Below are positions 1 to 26,719 of a stretch of DNA of 64,000 bases, one piece after another. The notes beneath the pieces are model-generated. The model was not told the DNA's origin and ran no database searches. It saw only the letters and a list, made by a program, of their open reading frames with translations. The first letter of the stretch is position 1. Each line of letters begins with the position of its first letter. Source of the stretch: Mycobacterium sp. Root265 (GTDB lineage: Bacteria; Actinomycetota; Actinomycetes; Mycobacteriales; Mycobacteriaceae); the NCBI RefSeq assembly GCF_001428895.1, contig NZ_LMJA01000007.1, positions 53,612-117,611 on the forward strand. Direction: 5' to 3'. The position numbers and the translations under genes were made by a program.

Positions 1-439
1 CGGCGATGGCGTCGTTGAGGCGATTGGCGAACTGCTTGAGGATTCGGTTGCTGACCTGAGCGATCACCCCGCTGCCGAACTGCGCGATCCGCCCACTGAG
101 CTCCAGATCGGTGGTGACGGTGACCGCCGAACTGCCGCCACGCTCGTGGGCAACCATGGTGACCGTGGCCTCGGCCGAGCCATTGCCCTTGCCGTCGCGG
201 GCGGTTCCCCGGACCACCATCCGATGCGTTCGGTCGTCGCGGTTCACGATCCGTGCCGTCCCGCCCAGCGTGAGGCCGACGGGTCCGACCTTCACTGTGA
301 CGTTGGCCCGGTGCTCATCACCCTCGCTGCTCTCCAGTTCGGCGCCCGGAATGCACGCCGCCACCTGCGGAATGTCGGTGAGTACGGCCCACGCGATATC
401 GATCGGTGCATCGACGACGAACTCGTTGACCAGCTGCAT
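1..439 (-). CDS. CoxG-like SRPBCC protein (3' end beyond window)
   Basis: This is the 5' part of a leftward gene starting at the ATG at 437-439 and running off the left edge. The product begins MQLVNEFVVDAPIDIAW, followed by a segment with CIPGAEL and KVGPV, the usual pattern of CoxG / carbon-monoxide-dehydrogenase subunit G proteins of the SRPBCC fold. CoxG proteins are associated with membrane recruitment or maturation of molybdenum hydroxylases, which fits the Mo-hydroxylase genes at 5399-9100. It is divergent from the reductase gene at 538 and shares its 98-bp control region, including the dyad at 497-513. The family call is firm; the exact role is inferred. Confidence 0.85.
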   Translation of the reverse strand, partial: MQLVNEFVVDAPIDIAWAVLTDIPQVAACIPGAELESSEGDEHRANVTVKVGPVGLTLGGTARIVNRDDRTHRMVVRGTARDGKGNGSAEATVTMVAHERGGSSAVTVTTDLELSGRIAQFGSGVIAQVSNRILKQFANRLNDAIA

Positions 440-466
440 CGCGGTGCTCCCTGTGTGACTGCGCTG

Positions 467-513
467 TTGAAGAACCCGGTGAGGTCCGCTTTACTATTGG
501 ATATTCTATCCAA
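467..513 (+). promoter_or_regulatory. promoter with TTGGATA-N3-TATCCAA operator
   Basis: A perfect 7-bp inverted repeat, TTGGATA-ttc-TATCCAA, lies at 497-513. A -10-like TACTAT at 492-497 abuts it, with a weak -35 candidate TTGAAG at 467-472 (spacer 19). A repressor here would cover the start of transcription of the reductase gene at 538, and possibly of the divergent coxG-like gene. Related dyads occur at 1862, 10125, 18243 and 18787. The palindrome is seen directly; the FCD-type GntR (VanR-like) regulator is inferred from resemblance to the VanR operator ATTGGATCCAAT. Confidence 0.7.
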
Positions 514-537
514 GACGCACCGTAAAGGGAGTTACGC

Positions 538-1536
538 ATGTTGAGCAAGGGTGTTGGACTTTTTCCCACCGAGCCGGTCGGTCCGATGTGCGACTACGTC
601 AAACTCTGCGAATCGCTGGGCTATGACAATGTGTGGTTCGGCGATTCGCAGAACATCTGGCGCGAGTCCTCAACCGTGATGGGCGCAGCGGCCGTCGGTA
701 CCGAAAAGATCGTCTTCGGCACCGGGGTGACCAATGCCGTGACGCGGCACCCGTCCGTGCTGGCGTCGACCTGGGCGACCTTGGCGGAGTTCACCAACGG
801 CCGAGTGGCGCTGGGCATCGGCACCGGAGACTCTTCGCTTCGGACCATGGGCCTTCGCCCGCAGAAGCTTGCCGAGCTCGAACAGTCGATCACCGACCTG
901 CGTGCCTTGTTCCGTGGGGAATCGGTGGCAGAGTCGAGCAGTGGCGCCGATTTTCACCTCAACTACGTGACCGAACCGATGGACATCCCGATCTACATCG
1001 CGGCGTCGGCACCGAAGATCCTGCAGATGTCCGGCCGTATCGCCGATGGCGTCATCGTGCTGGTGGGAACGGCACCGCATTTCATCGAAGCGGCGCTGCA
1101 GACCATCGAGGCCGGCGCCAAGGAGAGCGGCCGCACACTCGACGACCTGCACATCGTGTTGTGGACACCCACAGCGATCGCCGAAGACCGCACCGAGGCC
1201 CGCGATCTGGTGCGCGCTCATGTATCCCGTGTCGCCATCCGTCCGTTACCGGCCAAGGTGGACCCGGCGCTGGAGAAAGCGATCGACCGCATCCGGGACA
1301 GCTACAACTACTACGAGCACATGAACACCGAAGCCGCGCACGCCGACCTCGTCCCCGACGAACTGGTCGATCTGTTCGCCCTGGCGGGGACCCCCGATGA
1401 GTGTGCGCAACGGCTCAAGGAGATCGAATCCGTGGGTGTCAACCAAGTGTCGATCGTTCCTTTCGTGCGTCCCGGGCAGAGCAAGGAAGCAACCATCCGC
1501 ACCTTCGCCGATATCGTGGGCGGCCTCGGGCAATGA
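538..1536 (+). CDS. LLM-class (F420-type) flavin-dependent oxidoreductase
   Basis: The 332-residue protein has the TIM-barrel luciferase-like fold, with the N-terminal pattern KLCESLGYDNVWFGD, then GTGVTNAVTRHP and GRVALGIGTGDSS. It most resembles F420-dependent methylene-H4MPT-reductase-like members (mer-type) common in mycobacteria; FMN use cannot be excluded. The start at 538 is supported by AAAGGGA 8 bases upstream. It is the first gene behind the operator at 497-513 and overlaps a small downstream gene by ATGA. Because the island also encodes a ring hydroxylase and an enamidase-like enzyme, a role in reducing a hydroxylated N-heterocycle is proposed. That role is inference, while the family call is strong. 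Confidence 0.85.
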   Translation: MLSKGVGLFPTEPVGPMCDYVKLCESLGYDNVWFGDSQNIWRESSTVMGAAAVGTEKIVFGTGVTNAVTRHPSVLASTWATLAEFTNGRVALGIGTGDSSLRTMGLRPQKLAELEQSITDLRALFRGESVAESSSGADFHLNYVTEPMDIPIYIAASAPKILQMSGRIADGVIVLVGTAPHFIEAALQTIEAGAKESGRTLDDLHIVLWTPTAIAEDRTEARDLVRAHVSRVAIRPLPAKVDPALEKAIDRIRDSYNYYEHMNTEAAHADLVPDELVDLFALAGTPDECAQRLKEIESVGVNQVSIVPFVRPGQSKEATIRTFADIVGGLGQ

Positions 1537-1802
1537 CGGACCGCCGAGGTGCGCCCGCTACGGCTGCCGCCGGCTTCCCGGCTCCGGGCAGCAGGGTCGC
1601 CGGGGCGCCACCGGCACTGAAGCGCGTGCTGACACCGGCCGACGGGGTACTTCACGCTCCGCCCGTTGCTGAAGTGGCGACCGCCGCGGTGCCCGCGGCC
1701 GATCTGCGACGACCGTCCTTGTCGTCGTTCACCGCGGCCGCCGCCATGGCGGGCATCGCGGTCGGCCTCGAGCTGGCGCGACTGTCGAGAGGCGCTCGGT
1801 GA
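1533..1802 (+). CDS. small hypothetical protein (89 aa)
   Basis: The ATG at 1533 overlaps the stop of the reductase gene (ATGA), so the two would be translationally coupled. The 89-residue product starts MTDRRGAPATAAAGF, is rich in Ala, Pro and Arg, and has one short hydrophobic stretch near its C terminus (AAAAMAGIAVGLELARLSRG) that could be a membrane or amphipathic helix. No domain is recognised. The coding call rests on the overlap and on the absence of any other gene in this stretch; it could be a chance open frame in GC-rich DNA. Confidence 0.45.
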   Translation: MTDRRGAPATAAAGFPAPGSRVAGAPPALKRVLTPADGVLHAPPVAEVATAAVPAADLRRPSLSSFTAAAAMAGIAVGLELARLSRGAR

Positions 1803-1833
1803 GGTGTTATTTACGTCAAGTTAACGCGATCGG

Positions 1834-1871
1834 TTGACGCACCTCACACCCCCTTTTATAGTTGGATCCAA
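1834..1871 (+). promoter_or_regulatory. sigma70-type promoter with TTGGATCCAA operator
   Basis: TTGACG at 1834-1839 and TATAGT at 1857-1862 are separated by 17 bp, a near-consensus housekeeping promoter. The perfect 10-bp palindrome TTGGATCCAA at 1862-1871 starts within the -10 box and covers the expected start site. It matches the core of the VanR operator. The ABC-importer gene begins at 1900, behind a GGAGGTG ribosome site. This is the clearest repressible promoter of the island. Confidence 0.75.
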
Positions 1872-1899
1872 TATGCAGTTACCAGATGGAGGTGCTTTG

Positions 1900-2886
1900 A
1901 TGTTGCGTCTGACCAAGTGCGTGACTGCGTCACTCACAGTCTTCGCCGTACTGGCCACCGGTGCGTGCGCCGACGAGGGGGCGGCGCCCCAGAGTGGATC
2001 CGGCAGCAACACGCTGAGCATCTCGGCCACCGGCGTCGACAGCCTGCCGTTCATGGCCATCCTGCAGGCCGGCATCAACAAGAAGTGGTTCGAGGAAGAG
2101 GGCCTGGCCGTCGACCTGTTCTCGGGCGGCGGCGGTGGTAACACGCTGCGAGTCGTCACCAGTGGCGACGCCGACGTCGCCATCGCGGGCAACAGCTCGG
2201 TCCTGCTCGCCGCCCAGCAGCCCAATTCCAATCTCAAGGTGATCGCGCCCTGGTTCCAGGTCAACGACTTCTCCTGGATCAGCCCGCCCGGACGAAGCCT
2301 GGAGGGCGCGACCCTGGGTTTCAGTTCCGCCGGATCCTCGACCGAACTGATCGTCAAGGGCCTGCAACGTGAACTCCCCGGAGTGCAGGCACAGGCAGTC
2401 GGCCCGATGGGCGACAACTGGACGGCGGCGAAGGCCGACCAGATCACCGCAGGCTGGGCCATGCAACCCTTCATCGCCGACAAGCAGGCCACCGACAATG
2501 CCGAGGTGCTGGTGAATTCCCGGGAGTTGCTGGGTGACCTGCCCGCCGATCTGGTGGCAGTCAACACCGCATACGCCGAAGCCAACCCGGAAAACTTGCG
2601 CAAGTTCTTCAAGGTCGCCGACCGGCTGAACCAGTGGGTGGTGGAAAGCCCGGATGAAGCCGCGACCGAACTGGCGCCGCTGGTCGGTGTCGGTCCAGAA
2701 GTGATGAAGGCAGCCTTCCGTGACAATCCCGACCTCGCCAAAGGCTACTCGCTCAAGGTGGACACCGAGGGCCTGAAGAACCTGTCGGACCTGATGGTGG
2801 AGGCCGGGCAGATCTCCGAACCCGTCAACTGGGCGGAGACATTGGATCAGCAGTACCTGCCCGACGACGCCCAGTCCACGTTCTGA
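1900..2886 (+). CDS. ABC transporter substrate-binding lipoprotein (NitT/TauT type)
   Basis: The product is a 328-residue periplasmic-binding protein of the SsuA/TauA/NMT1 family. It has a lipoprotein signal with Cys at about residue 23 (VLATGAC), then DSLPFMAILQAGINKKWFEEEG, typical of this family's first lobe. The ATG at 1900 is preferred because GGAGGTG lies 6 bases upstream; an in-frame upstream start at 1834 would fall in the -35 box. It heads the importer operon (ATPase at 2951, permeases at 3757 and 4608) and should deliver the island's substrate. Families of this type carry sulfonates, nitrate, aromatic acids and thiamine precursors, so the ligand is not predictable from sequence alone. 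Confidence 0.88.
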   Translation: MLRLTKCVTASLTVFAVLATGACADEGAAPQSGSGSNTLSISATGVDSLPFMAILQAGINKKWFEEEGLAVDLFSGGGGGNTLRVVTSGDADVAIAGNSSVLLAAQQPNSNLKVIAPWFQVNDFSWISPPGRSLEGATLGFSSAGSSTELIVKGLQRELPGVQAQAVGPMGDNWTAAKADQITAGWAMQPFIADKQATDNAEVLVNSRELLGDLPADLVAVNTAYAEANPENLRKFFKVADRLNQWVVESPDEAATELAPLVGVGPEVMKAAFRDNPDLAKGYSLKVDTEGLKNLSDLMVEAGQISEPVNWAETLDQQYLPDDAQSTF

Positions 2887-2950
2887 GCCCGCAGCGACCG
2901 CGTGAACCGAACCCGTTGATGTCCGACAGCCTTGAAAGAGAGCGAAATTC

Positions 2951-3760
2951 GTGAGCAATCAGGGAATTCAAATCGAGAACGTGTCGGTCGTGTTCGACAC
3001 GGCAGCCGGGCAGGTGACGGCGGTCAAGCAGATCGATCAGCACATTCCGCCCACCAGCTTCGTGTCGATCGTCGGCCCCAGCGGCTGTGGCAAATCGACT
3101 CTGCTCGCCGTGATCTCCGGATTGCAGAAGGCCACCAGTGGAACGGTGAGTGTGGCGGGGCGACCGGTGAGCGGGCCGGACCCCAAGATCGGCGTGGTGT
3201 TCCAGGAGGACTCAACGTTGCCCTGGCGCACCGTCGAGGAGAACGTGGCGTTCGCGATGGAGATGATCGGGACCGAGAAGGCGGCCAGACGCCGACGGGC
3301 TCAGGAGGCGATCGAGCTGGTCGGTCTGCGGGGGTTCGAGAAGTCCTATCCCTCACAACTTTCCGGTGGCATGCGCCAGCGAGTGGCATTGGCGCGCACG
3401 CTCGCGGTCCAGCCCGAGGTGGTGCTGATGGACGAGCCGTTCGCAGCACTTGACCAGCAGACGCGCTTGTTCCTCGGTGCCGAGGTCCGCCAGATCTGGG
3501 CCCGCACGCATCAGACCATCATGTTCGTCACGCACGACATCTCGGAGGCCATTCTGCTGTCCCAGCAGGTGTGGGTGATGTCCTACCGGCCCGGAACCAT
3601 CATCGATGTCGTTGACATCGACCTGCCCGACGAGCGTGACGCCAGTGTTGTCTCGACACCCCGGTTCAACGAGTTGCACAACCGGATCTGGAGTTCCCTG
3701 CAGGCGGAGTCGATGCGCGGGTTCCAGCAGCAGGACACCAAGGAGAAGGCGTCGAAGTGA
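2951..3760 (+). CDS. ABC transporter ATP-binding protein (NitT/TauT type)
   Basis: The 269-residue ATPase carries Walker [10 protein letters not shown] (residues about 42-50), Q-loop [11 protein letters not shown], signature [16 protein letters not shown], Walker [13 protein letters not shown] and the H-loop [13 protein letters not shown], all intact. It belongs to the SsuB/TauB group. The GTG start lies 65 bp after the binding-protein gene, with AAAGAGAG upstream. Its stop overlaps the GTG of the first permease (GTGA). It energises uptake of the island's substrate together with two permeases. Confidence 0.93.
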
Positions 3761-4608
3761 CCACCTCCTATGTGGCGGCCGACGATCTGCCGTCGGAAAC
3801 TCTGCACGGGTCGCAGCGGGAGCCGGAGAACAGCACACCCGCGTGGCGTCCGGGCAAGCTCACGGTGAGTGTGTTGTCGACGGTGGGTCTGTTCGCGGCA
3901 TTCATCCTCTTCTGTGAGATCGGTGCGCGCGCCGGATGGTGGAGCGCGGGCATCCTGCCGGCCCCGTCGGTCATCGTTGCCGAACTGGGCGTCCTCCTCA
4001 CCGAGCCGCAATTCTGGAGTGACGCGGGCCGCACCGGATTCGAGGTGGCACTGGCCATTGTGTTCGGCGGGCTGCTGGGATTCGCTGCCGGCCTGGTCTT
4101 CTGGAAGATTCCGCTGGTCGGCCGGATCTTCGAACCGTATCTGGTGTCGTTCTACGCCGTCCCGTTGGTTTTGTTCTACCCGGTCATGATCGTCCTGGTA
4201 GGCATCAACGCCATGTCGGTGATCATCCTGGCGACCATCATGGCGGCCATCCCGATGGCGCTCAACACCGCGGTCGGTCTCAACACCATGCCCCCCGTCT
4301 ACATGAAGCTGGCTCGATCGTTGAAAGCCTCACCGCGACAGACGCTGTTCGCCATCGCCATCCCAGCGGCCGGACCTTTCATCGTCGCCGGTCTGCGACT
4401 CGCCGTGGTGTACGCCCTGATCGGGACCATCGCCATGGAATTCACCACGGCCCAGGCAGGATTGGGATACCGCATCCGCTACCTCTACGAAATCTTCGAC
4501 AACGAACTGATGTTCGCCCACATCGTGATGGTTCTCGTGCTCTCCGGCATTCTCACCATCCTGCTGGCCGTGGTAGAGCGGGCACTGCTGCGCGGAAGGA
4601 ATCTGTGA
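3757..4608 (+). CDS. ABC transporter permease 1 (NitT/TauT type)
   Basis: This 283-residue inner-membrane permease has about six hydrophobic segments and a BPD_transp_1 EAA-type loop ([20 protein letters not shown]) that contacts the ATPase. It starts with GTG overlapping the ATPase stop. A second, different permease follows immediately, so the importer probably uses a heterodimeric channel, whereas SsuABC/TauABC systems usually encode one permease. The first about 40 residues are hydrophilic. Confidence 0.9.
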
Positions 4609-5402
4609 TGACCACCATCGCCGGCCGGCACGCGGCCACCGAGCCGCCGGCGCGGCCCGACAGGTTCCAGGCCCGTGCGATCGTGACCAGCCAGGCTTTC
4701 GGGGCCGTGATGCTGGGATTCGTGATACTTGCCGTCTGGCAGGTGATGTCGGGTGTCACCTTCGTCATCCCTTCGCCTGCGCACACGGTGGCCGTGCTGT
4801 TCTCCAATCTCGCCGATCCTGCCTACCTTTTCGATCTGCGGGTCACGGCCCAGTCGGTGCTGATGGCATTCGTGATCGGCACCGCGGTGGGCGGCGGCAT
4901 CGGCCTGCTCCTCGGACTGTCGCCACTTCTGCGAACGGTCCTCGAACCGTCGATCATCATCCTCAACGGTATCCCCAAGATCGTGCTCTACCCGGTGCTG
5001 CTGCCCATCTTCAGCCTGTCGGGGTCCAAGGTGGTCATGGGCGTGTTGTTCGCCCTGTTCCCGGTTCTGATCAATGTCTCGACCGGCGTCCAGGAGATCC
5101 CGCGGGTGTACTGGAAGCTCGCGAAGTCGGTACGGGCGAACTCCTGGCAGACGCTGGTGCACATCATCTTTCCTGCCATTCGCCGTCCGCTGCTGACCGG
5201 CATCCGGCTCGCGGTGAGCCTGTCGGTCGTGGGCGTCGTGCTCTCGGAGTTCTTCGCCACTCGTCGCGGGCTCGGTCGAGTGGTGCTGCAGTCTTACAGC
5301 CACGGTGAATACCCGGCGATGGTCGCCACCATCATGCTGCTCATCACGATCTCCTTCGGTATCTCGATCGCGCTGTGGCAGTGGGAAAAGCGACTCCATT
5401 GA
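4608..5402 (+). CDS. ABC transporter permease 2 (NitT/TauT type)
   Basis: This is the second BPD_transp_1 permease, 264 residues from the ATG at 4608, which shares one base with the upstream stop (TGATG); a GTG one codon earlier is also possible. The EAA loop is KSVRANSWQTLVHIIFPAIR. It is related to but distinct from permease 1, consistent with a heterodimeric pore. Its end overlaps the start of the molybdenum-hydroxylase large subunit (TTGA), so import and first catabolic step are on one transcript. Confidence 0.9.
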   Translation: MTTIAGRHAATEPPARPDRFQARAIVTSQAFGAVMLGFVILAVWQVMSGVTFVIPSPAHTVAVLFSNLADPAYLFDLRVTAQSVLMAFVIGTAVGGGIGLLLGLSPLLRTVLEPSIIILNGIPKIVLYPVLLPIFSLSGSKVVMGVLFALFPVLINVSTGVQEIPRVYWKLAKSVRANSWQTLVHIIFPAIRRPLLTGIRLAVSLSVVGVVLSEFFATRRGLGRVVLQSYSHGEYPAMVATIMLLITISFGISIALWQWEKRLH

Positions 5403-7705
5403 GTTCGGAAACGGGCGGCGGACGCTACATCGGGACGTCGGTCCGTCGGCGTGAGGACGACCGCATGCTCAGCGGGCGGGGCCGATTTCTGGCCGACCAT
5501 GCCGCCGGTGCCCACCACATCGTGTTCGTCCGGTCGAGTCAGGCACACGCACGGATCACCCGAATCGACACATCGCGGGCGGCGGAGATGCCCGGGGTGC
5601 TGGGGGTGTTCCTCGCCCACGATCTCGGTCTGGCGGACACACCGATCACCGGATTGACCACTCCCGATCCGGGTTTCACTGCGGCGACGTCGTGTGTGAT
5701 CGCTGAGCAGCGCCTACCGATTCTCGCCACCGACCGGGTGCACTATGTCGGTCACCCGATCGCGGTGGTGGTGGCCGATGACCGTTACCGGGCCGAGGAC
5801 GCTGCCGAGAACGTCGACATCGAATACGAACCGCTTCCCGTCCTCACCGATGCGACGGCCGCACTCGAACCAGGGGCGCCGGTGCTCTTCGATCACCTGC
5901 CCGACAACGAGGCCGCCCGGATGCACTACGCGTTCGGTGATCCCGACGGTGCGTTCAGCCGTGCCCACCGCATCGTCGAGGGCAGCTACCAGATGAGCCG
6001 GCACGGCGCGGTGCCGTTGGAATGTCGGGGCGTGGCAGCCAGTTTCGATGCCAGATTGCAGCGCGTGGACATGCTCACCTCCACCCAGGTTCCGCACATG
6101 GTGCGTAACGCGATCTGCGCAGCCACCGGCTGGACCCGGGAGGACATCAAGGTCTCGGTACCCGACGTGGGCGGTGGCTTCGGGACGAAGGCCAACGTCT
6201 ACGGCGAGGAGATCATCGTCCCGGTGGTGTCCCGATACACCGGCTACCACGTTATCTGGGTGGAGGACCGGCAGGAGCATCTGGTCGCCAGTGCCCAAGG
6301 CCGCGATCAGCTGCACAAGACCAGACTGGCGGTGGACCGCGACGGCCGAATACTCGCGTGGCAAGACGATTTCGTCGTCGATATCGGTGCCGGCAGCCTG
6401 TGGGTCGCCGGAATCGTCGCCAACACCGCCATCCACCTGCTCGGGTCCTACCGGGTTCCGGCGGCGCGCATCAGTGGCCGGGCAGCATTGACCAACAAAA
6501 CGCTTGTCGCCCAGTACCGGGGAGCGGGTCGGCCCGAGGCGACGTTTGCCCTGGAACGCAGCATGGACGCGGCGGCGAGGGAACTCGGGCTCTCGACGGT
6601 GGAGATACGCCGCCGAAATCTGCTGACCGCCGACGACCTACCCTATCCGCGGCCGATCCCTTATCGCGACGGCGTACCGATCCTCTACGACGGCAAGGAC
6701 TACACGGCTTGCCTGGAGTCCGTGCTGACCTCCCTTCCCCAGTCGGAGGCCGACGAACTGGCGGACACCTATCCGGATCACCGGATCGGTTACGGCTTGG
6801 CGTGTTACATGGAAGCCACCGGCCGCGGTCCGCACGAGACCGCCCGCGTGAGGGTGTTGCCGAACGGCCAGTTCGAAGCTACCGCCGGCGCGGCCTCGGC
6901 CGGGCAGGGGCACGAAACCACATTTGCGCAGATTGCTGCGGACGCCCTGGAGGTGCCGCTGGAGCGGGTGCGGTATCTGGCTTCCGACACCGAACGCCTG
7001 CCCGACGGTGTGGGCACCTTCGCGAGTCGGTCGGCGATCCTGGCCGGATCGGCGATCCATCAGGGCGCCCGCGAACTCATCGACCTGGCTCGGGGGCGGG
7101 CGGCCGGTCTGCTCGGCTCGGCCGACGTGGTGTACCGCGACGGACGTTTCGAGGCCGACGGCAAGGCCGTCGGCTGGGGCGAGCTGGCCGCTGCGGTCCG
7201 GGACGGCGCGCCACTCGATATCAGCACGGTGTTCCGGGTGAACACCGTCACCTGGACGATGGGGGTGCACGCGGTGATCCTCGGGGTCCATCGGCATACC
7301 GGGATCGTGACGGTGCTCCGGTATGCGGTATCGCACGAAGGTGGGCGGGAGATCAATCCGCAAATCGTCGAGGGACAGGTGATAGGCGGTGTTGCGCAGG
7401 GCATCGGCGGCGCGTTGTTCGAGAAGTGGGCGTATTCGCCCGGCGGCGAACCGCAGTCGACCACCTTCGCTGCATACCACCTACCCCTGAGTACCGATGT
7501 TCCTCGGGTGCGGGTGACGCATCTGCATGTCGACACGCCGTGCAACCCGATCGGCGTGCGTGGAGCAGGTGAAAGCGGCGCAATCGCGGTATACGCCGCT
7601 GTCGCGGGTGCGATCGATGACGCGGTGGGTGGAAACATCCACATCGACCGCACGCCGATCAACACCGGTGACATCTGCCGAGCCCTGGACGCGGTGGCGT
7701 CATGA
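5399..7705 (+). CDS. molybdenum hydroxylase large (molybdopterin-binding) subunit
   Basis: This is a xanthine-oxidase-family molybdopterin subunit, about 768 residues from a TTG at 5399 that overlaps the upstream stop; a GTG at 5375 is an alternative. It shows the cofactor loop GGGFGTK (about residue 257) and the active-site Glu in GVRGAGESGAIAVY (about residue 725). The CO-dehydrogenase loop AYRCSFR is absent; the equivalent region reads AQYRGAGRPEA, so this is not a true CoxL. Such enzymes insert oxygen from water next to ring nitrogen in purines, nicotinate, picolinate or quinoline. With 7702 and 8576 it forms the L-M-S complex. The substrate is not determined by sequence. Confidence 0.9.
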   Translation: MSSETGGGRYIGTSVRRREDDRMLSGRGRFLADHAAGAHHIVFVRSSQAHARITRIDTSRAAEMPGVLGVFLAHDLGLADTPITGLTTPDPGFTAATSCVIAEQRLPILATDRVHYVGHPIAVVVADDRYRAEDAAENVDIEYEPLPVLTDATAALEPGAPVLFDHLPDNEAARMHYAFGDPDGAFSRAHRIVEGSYQMSRHGAVPLECRGVAASFDARLQRVDMLTSTQVPHMVRNAICAATGWTREDIKVSVPDVGGGFGTKANVYGEEIIVPVVSRYTGYHVIWVEDRQEHLVASAQGRDQLHKTRLAVDRDGRILAWQDDFVVDIGAGSLWVAGIVANTAIHLLGSYRVPAARISGRAALTNKTLVAQYRGAGRPEATFALERSMDAAARELGLSTVEIRRRNLLTADDLPYPRPIPYRDGVPILYDGKDYTACLESVLTSLPQSEADELADTYPDHRIGYGLACYMEATGRGPHETARVRVLPNGQFEATAGAASAGQGHETTFAQIAADALEVPLERVRYLASDTERLPDGVGTFASRSAILAGSAIHQGARELIDLARGRAAGLLGSADVVYRDGRFEADGKAVGWGELAAAVRDGAPLDISTVFRVNTVTWTMGVHAVILGVHRHTGIVTVLRYAVSHEGGREINPQIVEGQVIGGVAQGIGGALFEKWAYSPGGEPQSTTFAAYHLPLSTDVPRVRVTHLHVDTPCNPIGVRGAGESGAIAVYAAVAGAIDDAVGGNIHIDRTPINTGDICRALDAVAS

Positions 7706-8586
7706 AGCCGGCCGACTTTGATTACGTCCGGCCGCATACGGTTTCGGACGCCCTTGACCTGCTCGCCGAGAACCCAGATGCGAAGATCCTCGCCGGCGGC
7801 CAGTCGCTGCTGACGCTGATGAACCTGCGGTTGGCCCGTCCGACGATGCTGATCGACATCGGCGCACTGGAAGAACTGCGCAGGGTCTTCGATGACACCG
7901 ACGATCTGGTGCTGGGGTCCCTGATCACCCATCGCACCGTCGAGACGGATCCTCTCATCGGTGCCCGCGCGCCGTTACTGGCCGATGCCGCGCGCTATAT
8001 CGGTCATATCGGCATCCGGAACCGGGGAACCATCGGTGGCTCGGTGGCACATGCAGACCCCGCTGCCGAGATGCCACTGGCCACTCTCGTTCTCGACGCC
8101 ACATTCCACATCGAGTCGGCCATGTCCGGCCGCCGCGAGTTGTCCGCCGAGGACATGTTCGTGTCGTTCTACACCAATGCCCTGGAGCACCACGAGATCA
8201 TCACCTGGATCTCGATTCCGAGTGCCCGACCCAATGAGGGCTGGGGATTCGTCGAATATTCCCATCAGCATGGCGATTACGGCATGGCCGGTGCGGGGTG
8301 TGCGCTCACGTTGAGCCCGGATGGCCGGGTCTCGGCACTGCGCGCCGGCGTTCTCGCCGCGGCCGACCGGCCGCTGCTTTTCGTGGGGGACGAGGCCGTG
8401 GGAGCCGTGCCCTCGGAGAAGCTGTGGGCCGACCTCGCCCACGAATGGGCGGCGCGCACCGAACCTGCGGCTGATGATTCCGACTATGCGCGCCGGCTGT
8501 GCGCAACGGCGCTACGCGAAGCGCTGACCATGGCAGCGCATCGAACCATCGACCAATCAGAGGAGGAGGGCAGCTATGGCGGCTGA
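7702..8586 (+). CDS. molybdenum hydroxylase FAD-binding medium subunit
   Basis: The 294-residue protein is of the CoxM/XdhB family and contains both flavin signatures, AGGQSLLTLMNLRL (residues about 31-44) and IRNRGTIGGSVAHADPAAE (about 103-121), followed by the CO_deh_flav_C domain. It passes electrons from the Mo centre and Fe-S clusters to an external acceptor. The ATG overlaps the large-subunit stop (ATGA), and its 3' end overlaps the Fe-S subunit by 11 bp, as expected for stoichiometric subunits. Length is normal for the family. Confidence 0.94.
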   Translation: MKPADFDYVRPHTVSDALDLLAENPDAKILAGGQSLLTLMNLRLARPTMLIDIGALEELRRVFDDTDDLVLGSLITHRTVETDPLIGARAPLLADAARYIGHIGIRNRGTIGGSVAHADPAAEMPLATLVLDATFHIESAMSGRRELSAEDMFVSFYTNALEHHEIITWISIPSARPNEGWGFVEYSHQHGDYGMAGAGCALTLSPDGRVSALRAGVLAAADRPLLFVGDEAVGAVPSEKLWADLAHEWAARTEPAADDSDYARRLCATALREALTMAAHRTIDQSEEEGSYGG

Positions 8587-10185: not shown

Positions 10186-11398
10186 CATCGGCCTGCTGGT
10201 GCACGGTGACAGCTCGAAGTCTCCGATCCGAGACACGACTGTCGTGGTCGAGGACGGTGTCATCACCGGTATCGGAAGCCGCCATCCCGCACCCGATGCC
10301 GTGCTCTCCGCGGGCGGGATGACGGTGATGCCCGGCCTTGTCGACGGCCACGTCCACCCCACCTTCGGTGAGTGGACACCGGCGCAGAACTCCATCGGGT
10401 GGATCCACAACTATCTGCACGGCGGCACCACATCGATGGTGTCGGCGGGCGAACTGCACATTCCCGGACTGGACTTCGGCGCACTGACACCGGAACTCGT
10501 GCTGAGCATCGCGATCGTGTCCAAACACACGACCGGCCGGATGCGGCCCTCCGGGGTGAAGGTGAATGCCGGTACCGTGCTGCTCGTTCCCGGCATGACC
10601 GAGGCGCACTTCGACCGGGCGGCCGCAGAGGGCATCGATCAGCTCAAGTTCATCTTCTACGACTGGAACCGGTTGGGCGACGGCGAAGCTCAGCAGTATG
10701 TCGAGTGGGCGCATCAACGGGGCATGACGGTCAAACTGCACTCGGGCGGCGTCTCCCGTTCGGGCAGCAGCCGAGTCGCCGGACGCGATGTCGTCGCCGC
10801 GGTTCAGCCCGATATTGTCGGGCACATCTCCGGCGGCCCGATCCCACCTCCGGACGCGGACATCATCGCGATCATCGAGGACGTGCCCTCGGCAAGCCTG
10901 GAAGTGTGCAGTTCGAACAATTACCGGGCTACCAAGCTGGTCATCGATGAACTGACGGCCCGCGGTCAACTCGGACGCCTGACCATGGGTACCGATACCC
11001 CCGGTGGAACCGGGGTGATCCCACGCGGCATGATGCGCGCATTGTGCTTCCTGGCCTCGGTGTGCGGAGTCGACCCGGTGACCGCCGTGGCAGCAGCCAC
11101 CGGACAAACCGCACGGGCGCACGGGTTGAACACCGGTGTGATCGCCGAGGGCATGCCCGCTGACCTGTTGGTCCTCGGGCCGATCACCGGATCCATGGCC
11201 CGCGACGGGCTGGAATGTCTGGCACTGGGCGATCTTCCGGGTATCGCGACCGTCCTTGTCGACGGTGTCCCGCTGGTGCCCACCCGCAGTGAGCAGACCC
11301 CGCCGCCGAGCCGGTCGGTCACCTGGCGTGGATCGCCGGAGACCATGGTGCCCGCCGCGCCGGTTCCGGCCGGCGCCCCGCGCCCGGGTTGCTGCTGA
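10163..11398 (+). CDS. enamidase-like amidohydrolase
   Basis: This 411-residue amidohydrolase-superfamily protein has the metal-binding HVH (about residues 61-63, DGHVHPTF), a His in KLHSGG (about 193), a His in GHISGGP (about 220) and the Asp in MGTDTPGGTG (about 277). Recalled against Eubacterium barkeri enamidase, it shares LHGGTTSMVSAG-, RPSGVKV- and GLNTGVIAEG-type blocks and the C-terminal GDIPGI-like block along its whole length. Enamidase hydrolyses 6-oxo-1,4,5,6-tetrahydronicotinate in nicotinate fermentation. GAAGGAG precedes the GTG start. The relationship is judged from memory, and the true substrate may be another cyclic enamide. Confidence 0.78.
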   Translation: MTTLLIDDIGLLVHGDSSKSPIRDTTVVVEDGVITGIGSRHPAPDAVLSAGGMTVMPGLVDGHVHPTFGEWTPAQNSIGWIHNYLHGGTTSMVSAGELHIPGLDFGALTPELVLSIAIVSKHTTGRMRPSGVKVNAGTVLLVPGMTEAHFDRAAAEGIDQLKFIFYDWNRLGDGEAQQYVEWAHQRGMTVKLHSGGVSRSGSSRVAGRDVVAAVQPDIVGHISGGPIPPPDADIIAIIEDVPSASLEVCSSNNYRATKLVIDELTARGQLGRLTMGTDTPGGTGVIPRGMMRALCFLASVCGVDPVTAVAAATGQTARAHGLNTGVIAEGMPADLLVLGPITGSMARDGLECLALGDLPGIATVLVDGVPLVPTRSEQTPPPSRSVTWRGSPETMVPAAPVPAGAPRPGCC

Positions 11399-11425
11399 CC
11401 CACCGCTGAACAGAAAGGGCGACTC

Positions 11426-11554
11426 ATGACCAGAGCGCATCCCGTCATCTGGGCGGTAGGCAGTCTGGAATCCGCGTTGCCCCACGGGGGCACGAGCCAA
11501 ATGCCTACGCTGGTTGCCTGTCACGCCTGCTCCGGCGGGTCCGCGTTCCGCTGA
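11426..11554 (+). CDS. possible 42-aa small protein between enamidase-like and E1 genes
   Basis: A short frame starts at the ATG at 11426 behind GAAAGGG and encodes 42 residues, beginning [20 protein letters not shown] and ending [14 protein letters not shown]. It has two cysteines in a CHAC motif. It fills most of the 178-bp gap and stops 22 bp before the E1 start. No family is recognised. It could be a real small protein, a leader peptide or a chance frame; the good ribosome site is the main support. Confidence 0.35.
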
Positions 11555-11576
11555 ATCGCGAAGTGAGGGTTGCCCG

Positions 11577-13751
11577 GTGGTCGAACCTATAGATACCTAC
11601 TTTCTCGACACGATCGCCGGCGCCACCGCGGGCCCGGGGGAGCGCGAACAGGGGCCGCTCGGTGACCAGCTCCGGCTGGATCTGTTCGACGCGCAGTTGG
11701 GCAGTCGCCACCTCGATCTGGTGGCGCGGTGGCTTCGATCGAAGGGCAAGGGCTTCTACACGATCGGGTCGTCCGGGCACGAAGGTAACGCGGCGGTGGC
11801 AGCGGCGCTGCGCCCCACCGACCCGGCACTGCTGCACTACCGCTCCGGTGGTTTCTTCGTCGCCCGGGCCCAACAGGTGATCGGTAGTGACCCGTTGCGG
11901 GATGTTCTGCTCGGATTGGTCGCTGCGACCGAGGAACCCATCGCCGGTGGGCGGCACAAGGTTTTCGGCCGCCGCGATCTCAATATCATCCCGCAGACGT
12001 CCACCATCGCCTCGCACCTACCGCGCGCAGTCGGGGTTGCTTTCTCCATCGCACGCACCAGGAAACTGGGCGTCGCGTGTCCGTGGCCGGCGGACGCGCT
12101 GGCGGTCTGTAGTTTCGGGGACGCCTCGGTGAACCACTCGACCGCGGTCGGCGCCATCAACACCGCGGTGCACACCGGCTATCAGGGGGTACCACTGCCG
12201 CTGCTGTTCGTCTGCGAGGACAACGGCATCGGTATCAGCGTGAAATCCCCGCCTGGCTGGATCGCGGCGAACTACGCCCACCGCACCGGACTGGAGTACT
12301 TCAGCGCCGACGGCTCCGATCTCGCCGAGACCTACGCCGTCACCGCGGCGGCGGCACAGTGGGTGCGCGCCGAACGCCGCCCGGCGTTCCTGCATCTGCG
12401 CACGGTGCGGTTGATGGCTCACGCCGGGTCGGACTTCGAGCCGGCGTATCGCTCGCCGCAGGAAATCGCAGCGGACTACGACCGCGATCCGGTGTTGTGT
12501 ACGGCTCTGGACCTGGTCGAGCGCGGGCTGCTGACATCCGATGAGGTGTTGGAGCGATATCAGGCAAAGCGGGCACGGGTACTGGAGATCGCCGCCGAGG
12601 TGGTCGAGCTCGAGCAGCTCGGTAGCGCCGAGACGGTGATGCGCCCACTGCATGAAGGCCTCGACAATGCCATCACCGTGTCGGGCTACCCGCCTGCGAG
12701 GGACGAAACCGGCGCGCGCACCGACGAAACCCCGCTGACGCTGGCACTGTCGATCAACCGGGCCTTGGCCGAGGCGCTGGCGCGCCATCCCGAAGCGGTG
12801 CTGTTCGGTGAGGATGTCGCGGGCAAGGGCGGCGTGTACGGAGTGACTCGCGGATTGCAGGCCGGCGCCGGCCGGGCCCGGGTCTTCGACACGCTGCTCG
12901 ACGAGCAGGCCATTCTGGGACTGGCGCTGGGCGCCGGGGTGTCGGGACTTCTCCCGCTACCCGAGATCCAGTACCTCGCTTACGTCCACAATGCCTCCGA
13001 TCAGATTCGTGGTGAAGCCGCCAGCCTGCAGTTCTTCTCCGATCGGCAGTACCGCAACCCGATGGTGATCCGCATCGCCGGCTACGGCTACCAGAAGGGC
13101 TTCGGCGGGCACTTCCACAACGACAATTCGATTGCCGCGCTGCGCGACATCCCCGGAGTCGTCATCGCTTCACCGGCGCGACCCGACGACGCCGCGGCCA
13201 TGCTGCGAAGCTGCGTCGAAGCGGCGTCGTCCACCGGGGCGGTCTGCATCTTTCTGGAACCGATTGCGCTCTATCACACCCGCGATCTGCACGAAGACGG
13301 AGACGAAGGTTGGCTCGCGCGGTATCCCGGTGCCGGCAGTCGCCTCGACGGGCGGATCGGGCACGCACGCGTGCACGGTGACGGCACCGACCTGACCCTC
13401 TTGACCTACGGCAACGGCTTGCGGATGAGTCTGCGGGTTGCGCGGCGGCTGGAGCGACGTGGTATCGGTTGCCGCACCGTGGATCTGCGTTGGCTTTCCC
13501 CGCTTCCGGTCGATGACATGTTGCGTGAGGCGACGGCCACCGGCCGGGTGCTGATCGTCGACGAAACCCGCCGGTCCGGGGGCGTCGGGGAGAGCGTCCT
13601 CGCCGAACTCCTGAGCGGTGGATTCGCTGGGCGCATCGCCCGCGTGTCGAGTCAGGACAGCTTCATCCCGCTCGGCGACGCCGCACGTCACGTGCTTCTC
13701 GACGAGGACACCATCGAAGCCGCCGCGATCGACATCGTCGGAAACTGCTGA
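11577..13751 (+). CDS. fused E1 alpha-beta 2-oxoacid dehydrogenase (TPP-dependent)
   Basis: The roughly 724-residue protein joins an E1-alpha domain (residues about 1-370; TPP/Mg motif [17 protein letters not shown] near 180) to an E1-beta transketolase-like domain (about 380-724; [19 protein letters not shown], then [14 protein letters not shown]). It resembles branched-chain/acetoin-type E1 but is fused into one chain. The GTG at 11577 has AGTGAGGG 7 bases upstream. It decarboxylates a 2-oxoacid and would normally pass the acyl group to a lipoyl E2, yet no E2 or E3 gene is nearby. In this island the 2-oxoacid could be 2-oxoadipate or 2-oxoglutarate; that is inference. Confidence 0.85.
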
Positions 13752-13775
13752 GCGGCAACCGAAAGCGCGCCGATC

Positions 13776-16640: not shown

Positions 16641-16732
16641 GGCGAGGTCCGCGTGGGCCGAACTGCTCCGCCGATGCCCGGTGGTCGAGCCTCGAGTTCC
16701 ATGCCGATCTCCTGTGGGCTGTTTGTGACGAA

Positions 16733-18157
16733 TTACGCAGTGTCGGCGGGCATCCCAAAGGATGTGCTGAGTCGATCGGTGATCCCGAGTTCGCCCGCGG
16801 CTGCCGCCAGGGACCGGGAGCGTTGCGCGGAATAGAGATCGTTGGGGTCTGCGACCTGACGGTCGAGAATGTCGGACATCCAGCCGATGTCGCGTGCCGA
16901 TCCCGCCAGCGAGGTGTCTTTTCTGCCTTCCGAGGTCAGGTTCGACTGGAAGATGCCGGCCGCCGAACGTGGCAGGAAGTCCTCATAGACGATCGGTTCC
17001 GGGATGACCCAGCGGTGTTCGACAAGGCTGGTCAGATTCGGTTCGGCGGGTCCGGTTCGGGCCGATTCATCCGCGACGCGGAAGGTGAAGTAGGCGAGAT
17101 CCTGTGCCGCGAGCTCCTGTTCGGTGCGCGGGAGATGCTCGGTCCAGACCGCTCTGGCGATGTCCTGCCGGCTCGAGTCCGGATTGTCGGCCAAGCGCGC
17201 ATCGGTCTTGGCCACCATTGCGTCATAGAGGTCTCGGCCCGCCGGTGTCAGCGCGACGCCACGGGCCTCGACTTCGCCGAATCGCACGCGCAGCGAACCC
17301 GTGGAGATGTGCCCGTCGTCGTCGCGGAACCGGCGGGGCTCGGCGAGTGCGCGAAACGACGTCTGGCGCAACAACACATCGGGTCCATCCCACTGCGGGG
17401 GGCCCTGGATCTCGTCGATCATCGTGATCCCGCGGCTCTGCATGCGCGCGTAGAGCTCATCGATATCGAGCACCCGGGGCGTCAGATGGTTGATATGGGT
17501 GCTGCGCACGCCGCCGATGTCGGCCGCGACCGATGAGATGGCGTCCAGCGTTTCGTACCACGATCGGTCCACCGGCTCGGCGGACAATTCGAAGGCCGCA
17601 GTGGCCAGCGCGACGAACCGGGCGGCGTGGGGCTGGTCGAGGCCGCCGTCCGCCTCTGCCTGGCCGGCGAGTTCGAGTACCTCTGGTGTGAAGAGCCGAC
17701 GCTCGCCGAGGAACGCGGTCAGGCGCTCGGAGATCTTCGGTGAGAAGAACCGGCGGTCGTCCACCACGAGCATCGAGGTGAACACCCGGAACGGGTTGAG
17801 GGCGAGTTGGTCGGTGTCCACGGGCCGGAAGGCGGTGGACACCACCGGCACGGCGCTGGTGGCGGCGTCGCGAAGGTCGTAGAAACCGACGGGGTGCATT
17901 CCGAAGCCGGCGAAAATCGTTGCCACCTGGTGCATTTCCTGGGGCGTGCCGACGCGGATCGCGCCGTGGCGTTCCTCGGCCACCCGATCGGCGGTGCCCA
18001 GTCGTTCGGCGTCGGCGCCGTCGCGGATCAAGACGTCGCGGTTGACCTCGGCTGCCACGTCAACCAGTTCGTTGTACGCCGGCACTTCGGTGCCGTACAT
18101 CCGGGACAAGGACTGGGCGAATGCGGCCCGTAGTTCCCAGGCACTGACAAATGTCAT
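16733..18157 (-). CDS. 2-oxoadipate dioxygenase/decarboxylase (HglS/YdcJ, DUF1338)
   Basis: The 474-residue DUF1338 protein has the signature EERHGAIRVG (His64, Arg68), STHINHLTPRVLD (His221/His224) and RFGEVEARGVAL (Glu295). These match in spacing the metal-ligand and substrate residues remembered for Pseudomonas putida HglS (His70/Arg74, His226, Glu294; numbering from memory). HglS is an Fe(II) enzyme converting 2-oxoadipate to D-2-hydroxyglutarate in lysine catabolism. The ATG at 18157 has GAGGAGA 8 bases upstream; an in-frame ATG at 18196 is less likely. An operator-like site (18243-18253) precedes it. The D-2-hydroxyacid dehydrogenase gene is downstream in the same direction. Confidence 0.88.
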   Translation of the reverse strand: MTFVSAWELRAAFAQSLSRMYGTEVPAYNELVDVAAEVNRDVLIRDGADAERLGTADRVAEERHGAIRVGTPQEMHQVATIFAGFGMHPVGFYDLRDAATSAVPVVSTAFRPVDTDQLALNPFRVFTSMLVVDDRRFFSPKISERLTAFLGERRLFTPEVLELAGQAEADGGLDQPHAARFVALATAAFELSAEPVDRSWYETLDAISSVAADIGGVRSTHINHLTPRVLDIDELYARMQSRGITMIDEIQGPPQWDGPDVLLRQTSFRALAEPRRFRDDDGHISTGSLRVRFGEVEARGVALTPAGRDLYDAMVAKTDARLADNPDSSRQDIARAVWTEHLPRTEQELAAQDLAYFTFRVADESARTGPAEPNLTSLVEHRWVIPEPIVYEDFLPRSAAGIFQSNLTSEGRKDTSLAGSARDIGWMSDILDRQVADPNDLYSAQRSRSLAAAAGELGITDRLSTSFGMPADTA

Positions 18158-18242
18158 TCGGCAGGTCTCCTCTTCGCGGCGACGCGGAAGTGCCATGGGT
18201 GCTCACCCACTTCTCGGTCGGGAAAACTCAACAAAGTGTATA

Positions 18243-18253
18243 TCGGATCCAAT
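18243..18253 (-). promoter_or_regulatory. operator-like ATTGGATCCGA before the hglS-like gene
   Basis: Read on the minus strand this is ATTGGATCCGA, one mismatch from the TTGGATCCAA palindrome at 1862-1871. It is followed downstream by a -10-like TATACA. It lies in the 124-bp gap between the ridA-like stop and the hglS-like start, suggesting that the hglS-dehydrogenase pair has its own promoter under the same regulator. Confidence 0.55.
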
Positions 18254-18281
18254 TGCGGGAAAAGCCGGTGTGGCGGGTGGC

Positions 18282-18746
18282 TCAGCGGTCCACGGCAGCG
18301 ACGAGGTCGAGTTCCACGCATGCGCCGCCCGGTAGCGACGCAACGCCGATCGCGGTGCGGGCATGGGCGCCGACCTCCGCGCCGAAGACGGCCAGAATGA
18401 GGCCGGATGCTCCGTCGATGACCGCCGGGTGGTCGGCCAGCGTCGGCGCGCCCCGCACGTATCCCCGCAGATGTAGCACCGCGGTGACGGCGTCGAGGCC
18501 GACCGCGGCATCGATGGCCGCGATCAGATTGAGCGCGGCGACCCGGGCCTGAGCCTGGGCGTGTTCGACCGTCACGTCGTCACCGACGACGCCGACGGTG
18601 CCGGGGCCGGCTGGGGTCCGCGCGGTGGCGCCGGAAACCCACAGCTGTCCGTTGTGCAGGCGGACGGGAAAATAGTTGCCCTTCGGGGGTGGGGGAGGCG
18701 GAACGGAGAGTCCGAGATCCGTGAGCCGGGCGTGTGGCGAGGTCAC
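18282..18746 (-). CDS. RidA-family enamine/imine deaminase
   Basis: The 154-residue protein is of the YjgF/YER057c/UK114 family. The conserved Arg in HARTAIGVASLPGG and the following Glu in CVELDLVA correspond to the ligand-binding Arg and nearby Glu of RidA. An N-terminal extension carries a six-proline run. The GTG at 18746 is chosen because GGAGG lies 9 bases upstream; the in-frame ATG at 18779 has no ribosome site and nearly touches the operator. RidA proteins hydrolyse reactive imines/enamines to 2-oxoacids plus ammonia, the step that would follow enamide ring opening. Confidence 0.85.
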   Translation of the reverse strand: MTSPHARLTDLGLSVPPPPPPKGNYFPVRLHNGQLWVSGATARTPAGPGTVGVVGDDVTVEHAQAQARVAALNLIAAIDAAVGLDAVTAVLHLRGYVRGAPTLADHPAVIDGASGLILAVFGAEVGAHARTAIGVASLPGGACVELDLVAAVDR

Positions 18747-18781
18747 TGGGATGTTCCTCCGTGGTCGATCGGTCGACATGG

Positions 18782-18808
18782 CAATATTGGATACTATATT
18801 CAACATTG
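18782..18808 (-). promoter_or_regulatory. extended dyad operator before the ridA-like gene
   Basis: The core TTGGATA-cta-TATTCAA (18787-18803) has one mismatch from the dyad at 497-513 and the same spacer. It is extended by flanking CAAT/ATTG arms (18782-18785 and 18805-18808) into a 27-bp imperfect palindrome. A minus-strand -10-like TATAGT sits inside the core. The site marks the right edge of the island; the next gene rightward is the conserved ylbL-like protease. Confidence 0.65.
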
Positions 18809-26636: not shown

Positions 26637-26719
26637 CTTGGGGCCGGCTCCAAGAAGATGCCAAGTGGGCCGGGACATCGTGGGTCCCGATGAACAGCCC
26701 TGCCCGAAAGGACCCTCGA

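What the first reader, a model, noticed from the sequence alone, without database searches (positions are those of the whole stretch)
1..18808. Candidate reductive pathway from an N-heterocyclic carboxylate (picolinate-like) to 2-oxoglutarate
The island encodes an importer, a Mo hydroxylase, an F420-type LLM reductase, an enamidase homologue, a RidA deaminase, an HglS-type 2-oxoadipate enzyme and a YdiJ-type D-2-hydroxyglutarate dehydrogenase. The chemistry links up for picolinate: hydroxylation to 6-hydroxypicolinate, ring reduction to 6-oxo-1,4,5,6-tetrahydropicolinate, enamide hydrolysis to 2-amino-2-hexenedioate/2-iminoadipate, RidA hydrolysis to 2-oxoadipate, then D-2-hydroxyglutarate and 2-oxoglutarate. 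The aerobic picolinate routes I know go through 3,6-dihydroxypicolinate, so this would be a different, reductive route. Other 2-carboxylated azacycles would also fit. Gene families are seen; the pathway is inference.
Basis: partly seen in the sequence, partly recalled or inferred. Interest (0 to 1): 0.9.

Follow-up and report, generated by a model that had tools for sequence, protein, structure and literature searches.

The report
F420-powered picolinate breakdown gene island
A mycobacterium carries a block of genes that very probably breaks down picolinate (a pyridine acid) by reducing its ring with the unusual cofactor F420 and ending at 2-oxoadipate, a route for which we found no published description.

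Summary
The island (window about -914 to 18746) sits between two genes that adjoin in 17 of 17 other genus genomes where both were read. It encodes importer, Mo hydroxylase, Mer-like F420-type LLM protein, enamidase homologue (PDB 2VUN, E 5.9e-80, 39.6% identity), RidA, HglS and a YdiJ-like dehydrogenase.

In 47 related actinobacterial loci the core is conserved, while the stretches read carry at most one of three tails: E1, mostly with glutaryl-CoA dehydrogenase (27); HglS (6); TPP decarboxylase + aldehyde dehydrogenase (3). All fit 2-oxoadipate; 11 show none. [quoted passage not shown] Cluster HglS proteins form one clade apart from the genome's second copy.

Picolinate is the simplest pyridine carboxylate giving 2-oxoadipate by this chemistry, but the substrate is inferred; substituted picolinates and nicotinate are rivals. 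Nothing has been assayed. Nine searches of an open-licence paper library found no such pathway.

The parts
1..439 (-). CoxG-like protein (Mo-hydroxylase accessory), continues upstream of the window
   Evidence: PF06240 6.9e-18; full gene L007:19452-20051; conserved position in sibling clusters
538..1536 (+). LLM-class, Mer-like, proposed F420H2-dependent 6-hydroxypicolinate reductase
1834..2886 (+). substrate-binding protein of ABC importer (NMT1/SsuA type)
2951..3760 (+). ABC importer ATPase
3757..4608 (+). ABC importer permease 1
4605..5402 (+). ABC importer permease 2
5375..7705 (+). Mo hydroxylase large (molybdopterin) subunit; best solved relatives 6-hydroxypseudooxynicotine dehydrogenase and quinoline 2-oxidoreductase
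7702..8586 (+). Mo hydroxylase FAD subunit
   Evidence: PF00941
8576..9100 (+). Mo hydroxylase [2Fe-2S] subunit
   Evidence: PF01799, PF00111
9100..10185 (+). FUSC_2 / aromatic-acid-exporter-like protein (matched only in mycobacterial clusters)
   Evidence: PF13515 9.7e-15
10163..11398 (+). enamidase homologue (proposed to open 6-oxo-1,4,5,6-tetrahydropicolinate)
   Evidence: 2VUN E 5.9e-80; 149 of 376 aligned residues identical; alignment A1
11514..13751 (+). fused E1 alpha/beta 2-oxoacid dehydrogenase (in relatives usually next to glutaryl-CoA dehydrogenase)
   Evidence: PF00676, PF02779, PF02780
13776..16640 (-). YdiJ-like FAD/Fe-S dehydrogenase (proposed D-2-hydroxyglutarate dehydrogenase)
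   Evidence: below equivalog cut-off
16733..18196 (-). HglS, 2-oxoadipate dioxygenase/decarboxylase
   Evidence: PF07063 472 bits; NF050083 719.6 bits over cut-off 600; PDB 6w1g E 4.2e-84; clade of cluster HglS
18282..18746 (-). RidA/Rid-family protein (proposed 2-iminoadipate deaminase), GTG start with GGAGGA upstream
   Evidence: invariant Arg in 14 of 14; start read

Best explanation
The island is a self-contained actinobacterial catabolic unit for picolinate (pyridine-2-carboxylate). Proposed order: uptake by the ABC importer; Mo hydroxylase makes 6-hydroxypicolinate (6-oxo-1,6-dihydropicolinate); the Mer-like LLM enzyme reduces the ring by hydride transfer from F420H2 to 6-oxo-1,4,5,6-tetrahydropicolinate; the enamidase homologue hydrolyses the cyclic enamide to 2-aminohex-2-enedioate/2-iminoadipate; RidA speeds hydrolysis to 2-oxoadipate and ammonium; HglS (O2) gives D-2-hydroxyglutarate + CO2; the YdiJ-like dehydrogenase gives 2-oxoglutarate. 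Relatives replace the last two steps by E1 with glutaryl-CoA dehydrogenase, or by a TPP decarboxylase, aldehyde dehydrogenase and CoA-transferase. Shown: gene families, gene order, position as one block at one site, exclusivity of tails in the stretches read, HglS clade, F420-glucose-6-phosphate dehydrogenase (FGD) in sister clusters. Inferred: every reaction, and picolinate as substrate.
Against: No enzyme activity, growth or expression data. The window carries E1 but no GCDH orthologue, which the scheme does not explain. The CoA-transferase-family protein of the E1 type is nearest to 2-methylfumaryl-CoA isomerase, not to a glutarate CoA-transferase. YdiJ-like protein below equivalog cut-off, and YdiJ adjoins HglS in only 2 of the 6 other HglS-type loci. 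GCDH occurs outside the cluster in 3 of 7 HglS-type genomes, so complementarity is incomplete. FGD is not over the cut-off anywhere in the L075 and L077 genomes, and only a 31-residue piece of low score appears in that of L065. Six uncut loci (L070, L071, L074, L078, L080, L085) have no tail beside them; HglS of 61% lies elsewhere in the genomes of L070 and L074 but none was found for L071, L078, L080, L085; a TPP-type genome (L084) also holds an HglS elsewhere, 63%. By family model the Mo subunit is not specific: best NCBIfam matches are CO dehydrogenase and glyceraldehyde dehydrogenase models, all below cut-off. The enamidase homologue lacks Glu164 of 2VUN (Phe163 here, invariant Lys162 beside it), so its metal site may differ. 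The substrate-binding protein has no informative solved relative. The nicotinate pathway also uses an enamidase and, by recall, can end at glutaryl-CoA.
Confidence: 0.67

Rival explanations
1. Same reductive route, different 2-carboxylated azaarene: a substituted picolinate (such as fusaric acid), 6-hydroxypicolinate itself, or a picolinate precursor.
For: The chemistry tolerates ring substituents in principle; mycobacterial clusters carry a FUSC-type (fusaric-acid-resistance-like) protein.
Against: Substituents would leave a branched 2-oxoadipate, whereas HglS and glutaryl-CoA dehydrogenase of ordinary families follow; no nitrilase, amidase or ring decarboxylase recurs among the neighbours scanned, which are only a part of all neighbours; FUSC was not matched in the non-mycobacterial clusters.
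Confidence: 0.14
2. Nicotinate catabolism of the Eubacterium/Azorhizobium kind: 6-hydroxynicotinate, 1,4,5,6-tetrahydro-6-oxonicotinate, 2-formylglutarate, on to glutarate and glutaryl-CoA.
For: The one enamidase described as experimentally confirmed acts there (PMC7356986 and PMC9304392, passages); glutaryl-CoA dehydrogenase and CoA-transferase-family genes occur in many siblings.
Against: 2-Formylglutarate is not a 2-oxo acid, yet the tails are HglS, a TPP-type decarboxylase or an E1 2-oxoacid dehydrogenase. No dehydrogenase for 2-hydroxymethylglutarate was among the island proteins scanned; the rest of the genome was not searched for one. The nicotinate dehydrogenase large subunit (3hrd, a split chain) is a far weaker relative of the Mo subunit.
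Confidence: 0.1
3. Oxygenolytic pyridine cleavage: the LLM is a flavin monooxygenase (RutA/PyrA-like) and the amidohydrolase-fold protein a KpiC-type dioxygenase.
For: KpiC of Arthrobacter IN13 is an amidohydrolase-superfamily dioxygenase with enamidase among its closest homologues, 28% (PMC7356986 section 19); RutA and a Rid protein occur together in the Rut pathway (recalled).
Against: LLM groups with F420 Mer, not with RutA; FGD in sister clusters; 39.6% identity to true enamidase; no flavin reductase among the island proteins. KpiC's own sequence was not compared.
Confidence: 0.04
4. Two unrelated units side by side: ordinary lysine catabolism (RidA-HglS-YdiJ) next to a Mo-hydroxylase/amidohydrolase cluster for something else.
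For: HglS and YdiJ serve lysine catabolism elsewhere (recalled); in the window they lie on the opposite strand.
Against: All sits as one block at one site; RidA is part of the core beside GntR/CoxG in siblings where that part was read; cluster HglS forms its own clade and the genome keeps a second HglS elsewhere; enamidase and HglS are neighbours in three families of actinobacteria.
Confidence: 0.04

Closest known systems
Reductive nicotinate pathway (Eubacterium barkeri; Azorhizobium caulinodans)
   Same: Partial ring saturation of a hydroxylated pyridine carboxylate, then enamidase-type hydrolytic ring opening (passages of PMC9304392); Mo hydroxylase as first step (recalled)
   Different: Here the reductase is an F420-type LLM protein instead of the 6-hydroxynicotinate reductase (Fe-S/ferredoxin type, recalled), RidA is added, and the tails handle a 2-oxo acid (2-oxoadipate), not 2-formylglutarate
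Aerobic picolinate pathway pic (Alcaligenes faecalis JQ135, Bordetella)
   Same: Same presumed substrate and first product, 6-hydroxypicolinate, by picolinate dehydrogenase PicA (PMC10142695, passages)
   Different: pic goes on oxidatively: 3,6-dihydroxypicolinate, 2,5-dihydroxypyridine, fumarate; no PicB-PicF type genes among the island's proteins (rest of genome not searched)
HglS/YdiJ branch of bacterial lysine catabolism
   Same: Same two last enzyme types (2-oxoadipate to D-2-hydroxyglutarate to 2-oxoglutarate; recalled)
   Different: HglS here belongs to a cluster-specific clade and is fed, by inference, from a pyridine ring
F420H2-dependent picrate reduction (Nocardioides, Rhodococcus)
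   Same: LLM-type F420H2 hydride transfer to an aromatic ring in aerobic actinobacteria (PMC8498797, passages)
   Different: Substrate would be a hydroxypyridine carboxylate, not a nitroaromatic; the F420 review's two hits for 'pyridine' are reference titles about pyridine nucleotides
KpiC-type 4-hydroxypyridine pathway (Arthrobacter IN13)
   Same: Amidohydrolase-superfamily protein acting on a pyridine
   Different: KpiC is an oxygenase on 3,4-dihydroxypyridine (PMC7356986 section 19)

Membership tests
Enamidase (2VUN) | full-length homology to enamidase above other amidohydrolases | tested here: met
   E 5.9e-80 over residues 3-385; next PDB hit 1.3e-4; 149 of 376 identical
Enamidase (2VUN) | metal-ligand His/Asp positions (identity of the ligands recalled) | tested here: met
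   H63, H65, H193, H221, D278 align with H67, H69, H193, H220, D276 of 2VUN and are invariant in 16 mycobacterial sequences
Enamidase (2VUN) | bridging Glu164 (recalled) | tested here: not met
   Phe163 aligned; invariant Lys162 next to it, the usual bridging carboxylated lysine of the superfamily (recalled) being a possibility
Enamidase (2VUN) | hydrolysis of a cyclic enamide | not testable with these tools
   needs assay
HglS 2-oxoadipate dioxygenase/decarboxylase | over curated equivalog cut-off | tested here: met
   NF050083 719.6 bits, cut-off 600; 6w1g E 4.2e-84
F420-dependent LLM oxidoreductase | closest in sequence and fold to F420 rather than FMN members | tested here: met
F420-dependent LLM oxidoreductase | F420 binding and use | not testable with these tools
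   indirect only: cofD 14 of 14, FGD in sister clusters
Mer (methylenetetrahydromethanopterin reductase) | over Mer equivalog cut-off | tested here: not met
   TIGR03555 174.7 of 348.7; NF002619 192.3 of 276
Xanthine-oxidase-family Mo hydroxylase | three subunits with MoCo, FAD and [2Fe-2S] domains | tested here: met
YdiJ D-2-hydroxyglutarate dehydrogenase | over equivalog cut-off NF049975 | tested here: not met
   444 of 1350 bits; works-like only
RidA/Rid | catalytic Arg (identity with RidA Arg105 recalled) | tested here: met
   R128 invariant in 14 of 14; PF14588 46.3 bits, cut-off 35
pic picolinate pathway | 6-hydroxypicolinate monooxygenase, PicC decarboxylase, PicD-F in the cluster | tested here: not met
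   no such families among the island proteins scanned; the rest of the genome was not searched
E. barkeri-type nicotinate pathway | 2-formylglutarate-handling enzymes | tested here: inconclusive
   none among island proteins; rest of genome not searched; tails are 2-oxoacid enzymes
Catabolic island inserted as a unit | empty site in relatives | tested here: met
   17 of 17 other genomes with the Zincin gene have PDZ/Lon adjoining

The most novel reading that the evidence does not exclude
Actinobacteria across several families degrade picolinate aerobically by a previously undescribed reductive route in which F420H2 takes the place of the low-potential ferredoxin of the anaerobic nicotinate pathway, with F420H2 supplied in some clusters by a dedicated F420-glucose-6-phosphate dehydrogenase, and with three interchangeable, mutually exclusive tails joined at 2-oxoadipate. 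It would be the first F420-dependent reduction of a pyridine ring known to us.
Probability: 0.6. Interest if true: 0.82.

Novelty: new variant of a known kind. Interest (0 to 1): 0.76.

Why it matters
It would add a second, reductive logic to aerobic pyridine-carboxylate catabolism, give a natural role to one of the many unassigned actinobacterial F420 LLM enzymes, link HglS to heterocycle breakdown beyond lysine, and yield enzymes for selective reduction and opening of hydroxypyridines. The gene set is compact, recurs in several genera and makes sharp predictions for each step, so it is directly testable.

Tried and rejected
AlphaFold model of the enamidase homologue was poor (mean pLDDT 48.6) and was not used. 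Solved-structure search with the substrate-binding protein gave only weak, uninformative relatives. Nine paper searches found no description of this pathway; several of them list only the best rows, and the library holds open-licence papers only, so subscription papers are unseen. A selection of neighbours of sibling clusters was scanned for hints of a precursor (nitrilase, amidase, ring decarboxylase): none recurs. The idea that E1 simply replaces HglS fails for the window itself, which has both; it holds for the stretches read of the other 47 loci. The idea that every HglS-type genome lacks GCDH fails: 3 of 7 have one elsewhere. A strict search for GCDH in the window genome alone returned nothing and carried no control; it was repeated at a looser threshold with positive genomes beside it. 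A second LLM gene first taken as unexplained turned out to be FGD.

Rows dropped or merged before the count of 47: L090 dropped as a chance match (43 residues, 49%); 11 named loci merged with the anonymous loci of equal contig length; further duplicates, or one cluster split over two contigs (for instance L047 ends and L066 begins near the same gene), cannot be excluded. L086, a MAG record labelled Klebsiella, shows only the enamidase gene and looks misbinned, but was kept; L074 (only enamidase and LLM) was kept too.
Full report
WHAT IS THERE. The window lies on contig 7 (positions 53612-117611) of a 6.67-Mb genome. Gene calls by codon-position GC and Pfam/NCBIfam scans give, in order: GntR/FCD regulator (window -914 to -165), CoxG (minus strand, -160 to 439), LLM protein (538-1536), NMT1/SsuA-type ABC importer (1834-5402), three-subunit Mo hydroxylase (5375-9100), FUSC_2 protein (9100-10185), amidohydrolase (10163-11398), fused E1 2-oxoacid dehydrogenase (11514-13751), then on the minus strand YdiJ-like (13776-16640), HglS (16733-18196) and RidA (18282-18746, start read). 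Plus-strand genes from the ATPase to the amidohydrolase overlap or abut.

BOUNDARIES. The flanks are a Zincin_2 gene and a PDZ/Lon gene followed by UPF0182. A search with the Zincin gene found it in 18 of 21 genomes; leaving out the window's own, PDZ/Lon adjoins it in 17 of 17. The island is therefore a block at one site that is empty in these relatives; whether it came in one step is not shown.

RELATIVES. 21 of 198 genus genomes, the window's included, carry the large Mo subunit at E 1e-150 or better; 20 neighbourhoods were fetched. A scan of the genome collection with the enamidase alignment gave 39 loci, one of them spurious (L090). They come from Mycobacterium/Mycolicibacterium, Sciscionella, Knoellia, Amycolatopsis, Sphaerisporangium, Nonomuraea, Pseudonocardia, Planosporangium, Nocardioides, Georgenia, Streptomyces, Tamaricihabitans, a Streptosporangiales MAG and a MAG record labelled Klebsiella. 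LLM and enamidase homologue occur together in 39 of 47, Mo subunit over 50% identity with the enamidase homologue in 38 of 47, RidA in 25 of 47; many misses are cut stretches. In siblings where that part was read RidA lies between GntR and CoxG, so it belongs to the core; in the window it lies next to HglS.

TAILS. Of the 47 loci, 27 carry E1 (24 of these with glutaryl-CoA dehydrogenase; the L032 protein matches PDB 3SF6 at 1.1e-216), 6 carry HglS, 3 carry a TPP-enzyme decarboxylase plus aldehyde dehydrogenase (two of these also a CoA-transferase whose best NCBIfam match is succinate-glutarate CoA-transferase, below its cut-off). No locus shows two of the three within the stretch read. Eleven show none: L030, L047, L073, L079 and L086 are cut by contig ends; L070, L071, L074, L078, L080 and L085 are not. 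The window alone has E1 and HglS together. The three tails are not homologous but all make sense for one compound, 2-oxoadipate: to D-2-hydroxyglutarate (HglS), to glutaryl-CoA (E1), or to glutarate semialdehyde (TPP enzyme). E1 substrate and partner E2 are unknown, and the CoA-transferase-family gene in E1-type clusters resembles 2-methylfumaryl-CoA isomerase. The window's HglS was also sought in 13 cluster genomes: besides the window and L075 genomes, a protein of 61-63% identity lies elsewhere in the genomes of L070, L074 and L084; none was found in those of L071, L073, L078, L080, L081, L082, L085 and L088.

HglS. The window's protein passes the curated HglS cut-off (719.6 against 600), as does the Sphaerisporangium one (719.0). 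PF07063 is found in 28 of 60 genus genomes. In a tree of 35 HglS rows the 7 cluster proteins from mycobacteria, Streptosporangiaceae and Georgenia form one group with support 97/94, apart from 27 of the 28 others; the remaining row, L092, is a long branch placed beside the cluster group. The window genome's other copy (contig 10) is among the 27. In Sphaerisporangium and Nonomuraea the order is enamidase-HglS-YdiJ; in the other four HglS-type loci no YdiJ was matched.

GLUTARYL-CoA DEHYDROGENASE. Searched in 12 genomes: an orthologue of 64% identity or more is in 5 of 5 E1-type genomes and in 3 of 7 HglS-type (those of L039, L075, L077); the window genome (best 34%) and those of L035, L083 and L065 have nothing above 37%. 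So in the window's genome the E1/GCDH end looks unavailable and HglS-YdiJ the working exit; the leftover E1 is unexplained.

UPPER STEPS. The Mo subunit's best solved relatives are 6-hydroxypseudooxynicotine dehydrogenase (2.3e-133) and quinoline 2-oxidoreductase (2.3e-113), followed by CO dehydrogenase (2.2e-94); nicotinate dehydrogenase, whose large subunit is split in two chains, comes at 2.1e-32. NCBIfam models for CO and glyceraldehyde dehydrogenases match best but below their cut-offs. The amidohydrolase's best solved relative is enamidase, 39.6% identical over 376 aligned positions, with His/Asp ligand positions kept; Glu164 is replaced by Phe163 and an invariant Lys162 stands beside it (ligand roles recalled). 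The Rid arginine is invariant in 14 of 14.

WHY PICOLINATE. By established chemistry, Mo hydroxylation at C6, two-electron reduction and enamide hydrolysis of pyridine-2-carboxylate give 2-iminoadipate, a 2-imino acid as expected for RidA, then 2-oxoadipate; atoms balance. Nicotinate would give 2-formylglutarate, isonicotinate a branched chain. This is inference; substituted picolinates or precursors remain possible.

LITERATURE. PMC10142695 (passages): known picolinate pathway through 6-hydroxy- and 3,6-dihydroxypicolinate. PMC9304392 (passages): reductive nicotinate route with enamidase. PMC7356986 (section 19 and a passage): KpiC. PMC8498797 (passages): F420 roles, with picrate as an aromatic ring reduced by hydride transfer. 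All other papers were seen in search listings only. No paper with this route was found in searches; the library holds open-licence papers only.

VERDICT. My estimates: 2-oxoadipate as the junction about 0.85, F420H2 as the reductant about 0.88, picolinate as the main substrate about 0.67.

Noticed in passing
[quoted passage not shown]
   Followed up: yes
window 11514-13751: Fused E1 2-oxoacid dehydrogenase kept in a genome without a glutaryl-CoA dehydrogenase orthologue; role unexplained.
   Followed up: partly
window 10163-11398, residues 162-163: Invariant Lys162 next to the position of 2VUN Glu164 (Phe163 here): possible different metal bridge in this enamidase subfamily.
   Followed up: partly
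window 36670-38439: 589-aa protein with a Cas12f1-like TNB domain (TnpB-like).
   Followed up: no
window 9100-10185: FUSC_2 protein matched in mycobacterial clusters only, not in those of other genera.
   Followed up: partly
L082:505-1557 and 11245-14950: Nocardioides daejeonensis locus: enamidase, RidA and TPP tail kept, but a different Mo hydroxylase (29%) and another F420-type LLM protein (TIGR03559, 467 bits) nearby: possible non-orthologous replacement.
   Followed up: partly
L086: Enamidase homologue (58%) on a MAG contig labelled Klebsiella pneumoniae; probably misbinned.
   Followed up: no
L092: Divergent HglS (58% to the window's) on a long branch beside the cluster clade.
   Followed up: no
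window 23205-28105, 29519-32455, 57903-59300: BTAD/AAA regulator with FAD-binding oxidase, an MMPL protein and a cytochrome P450 outside the island.
   Followed up: no
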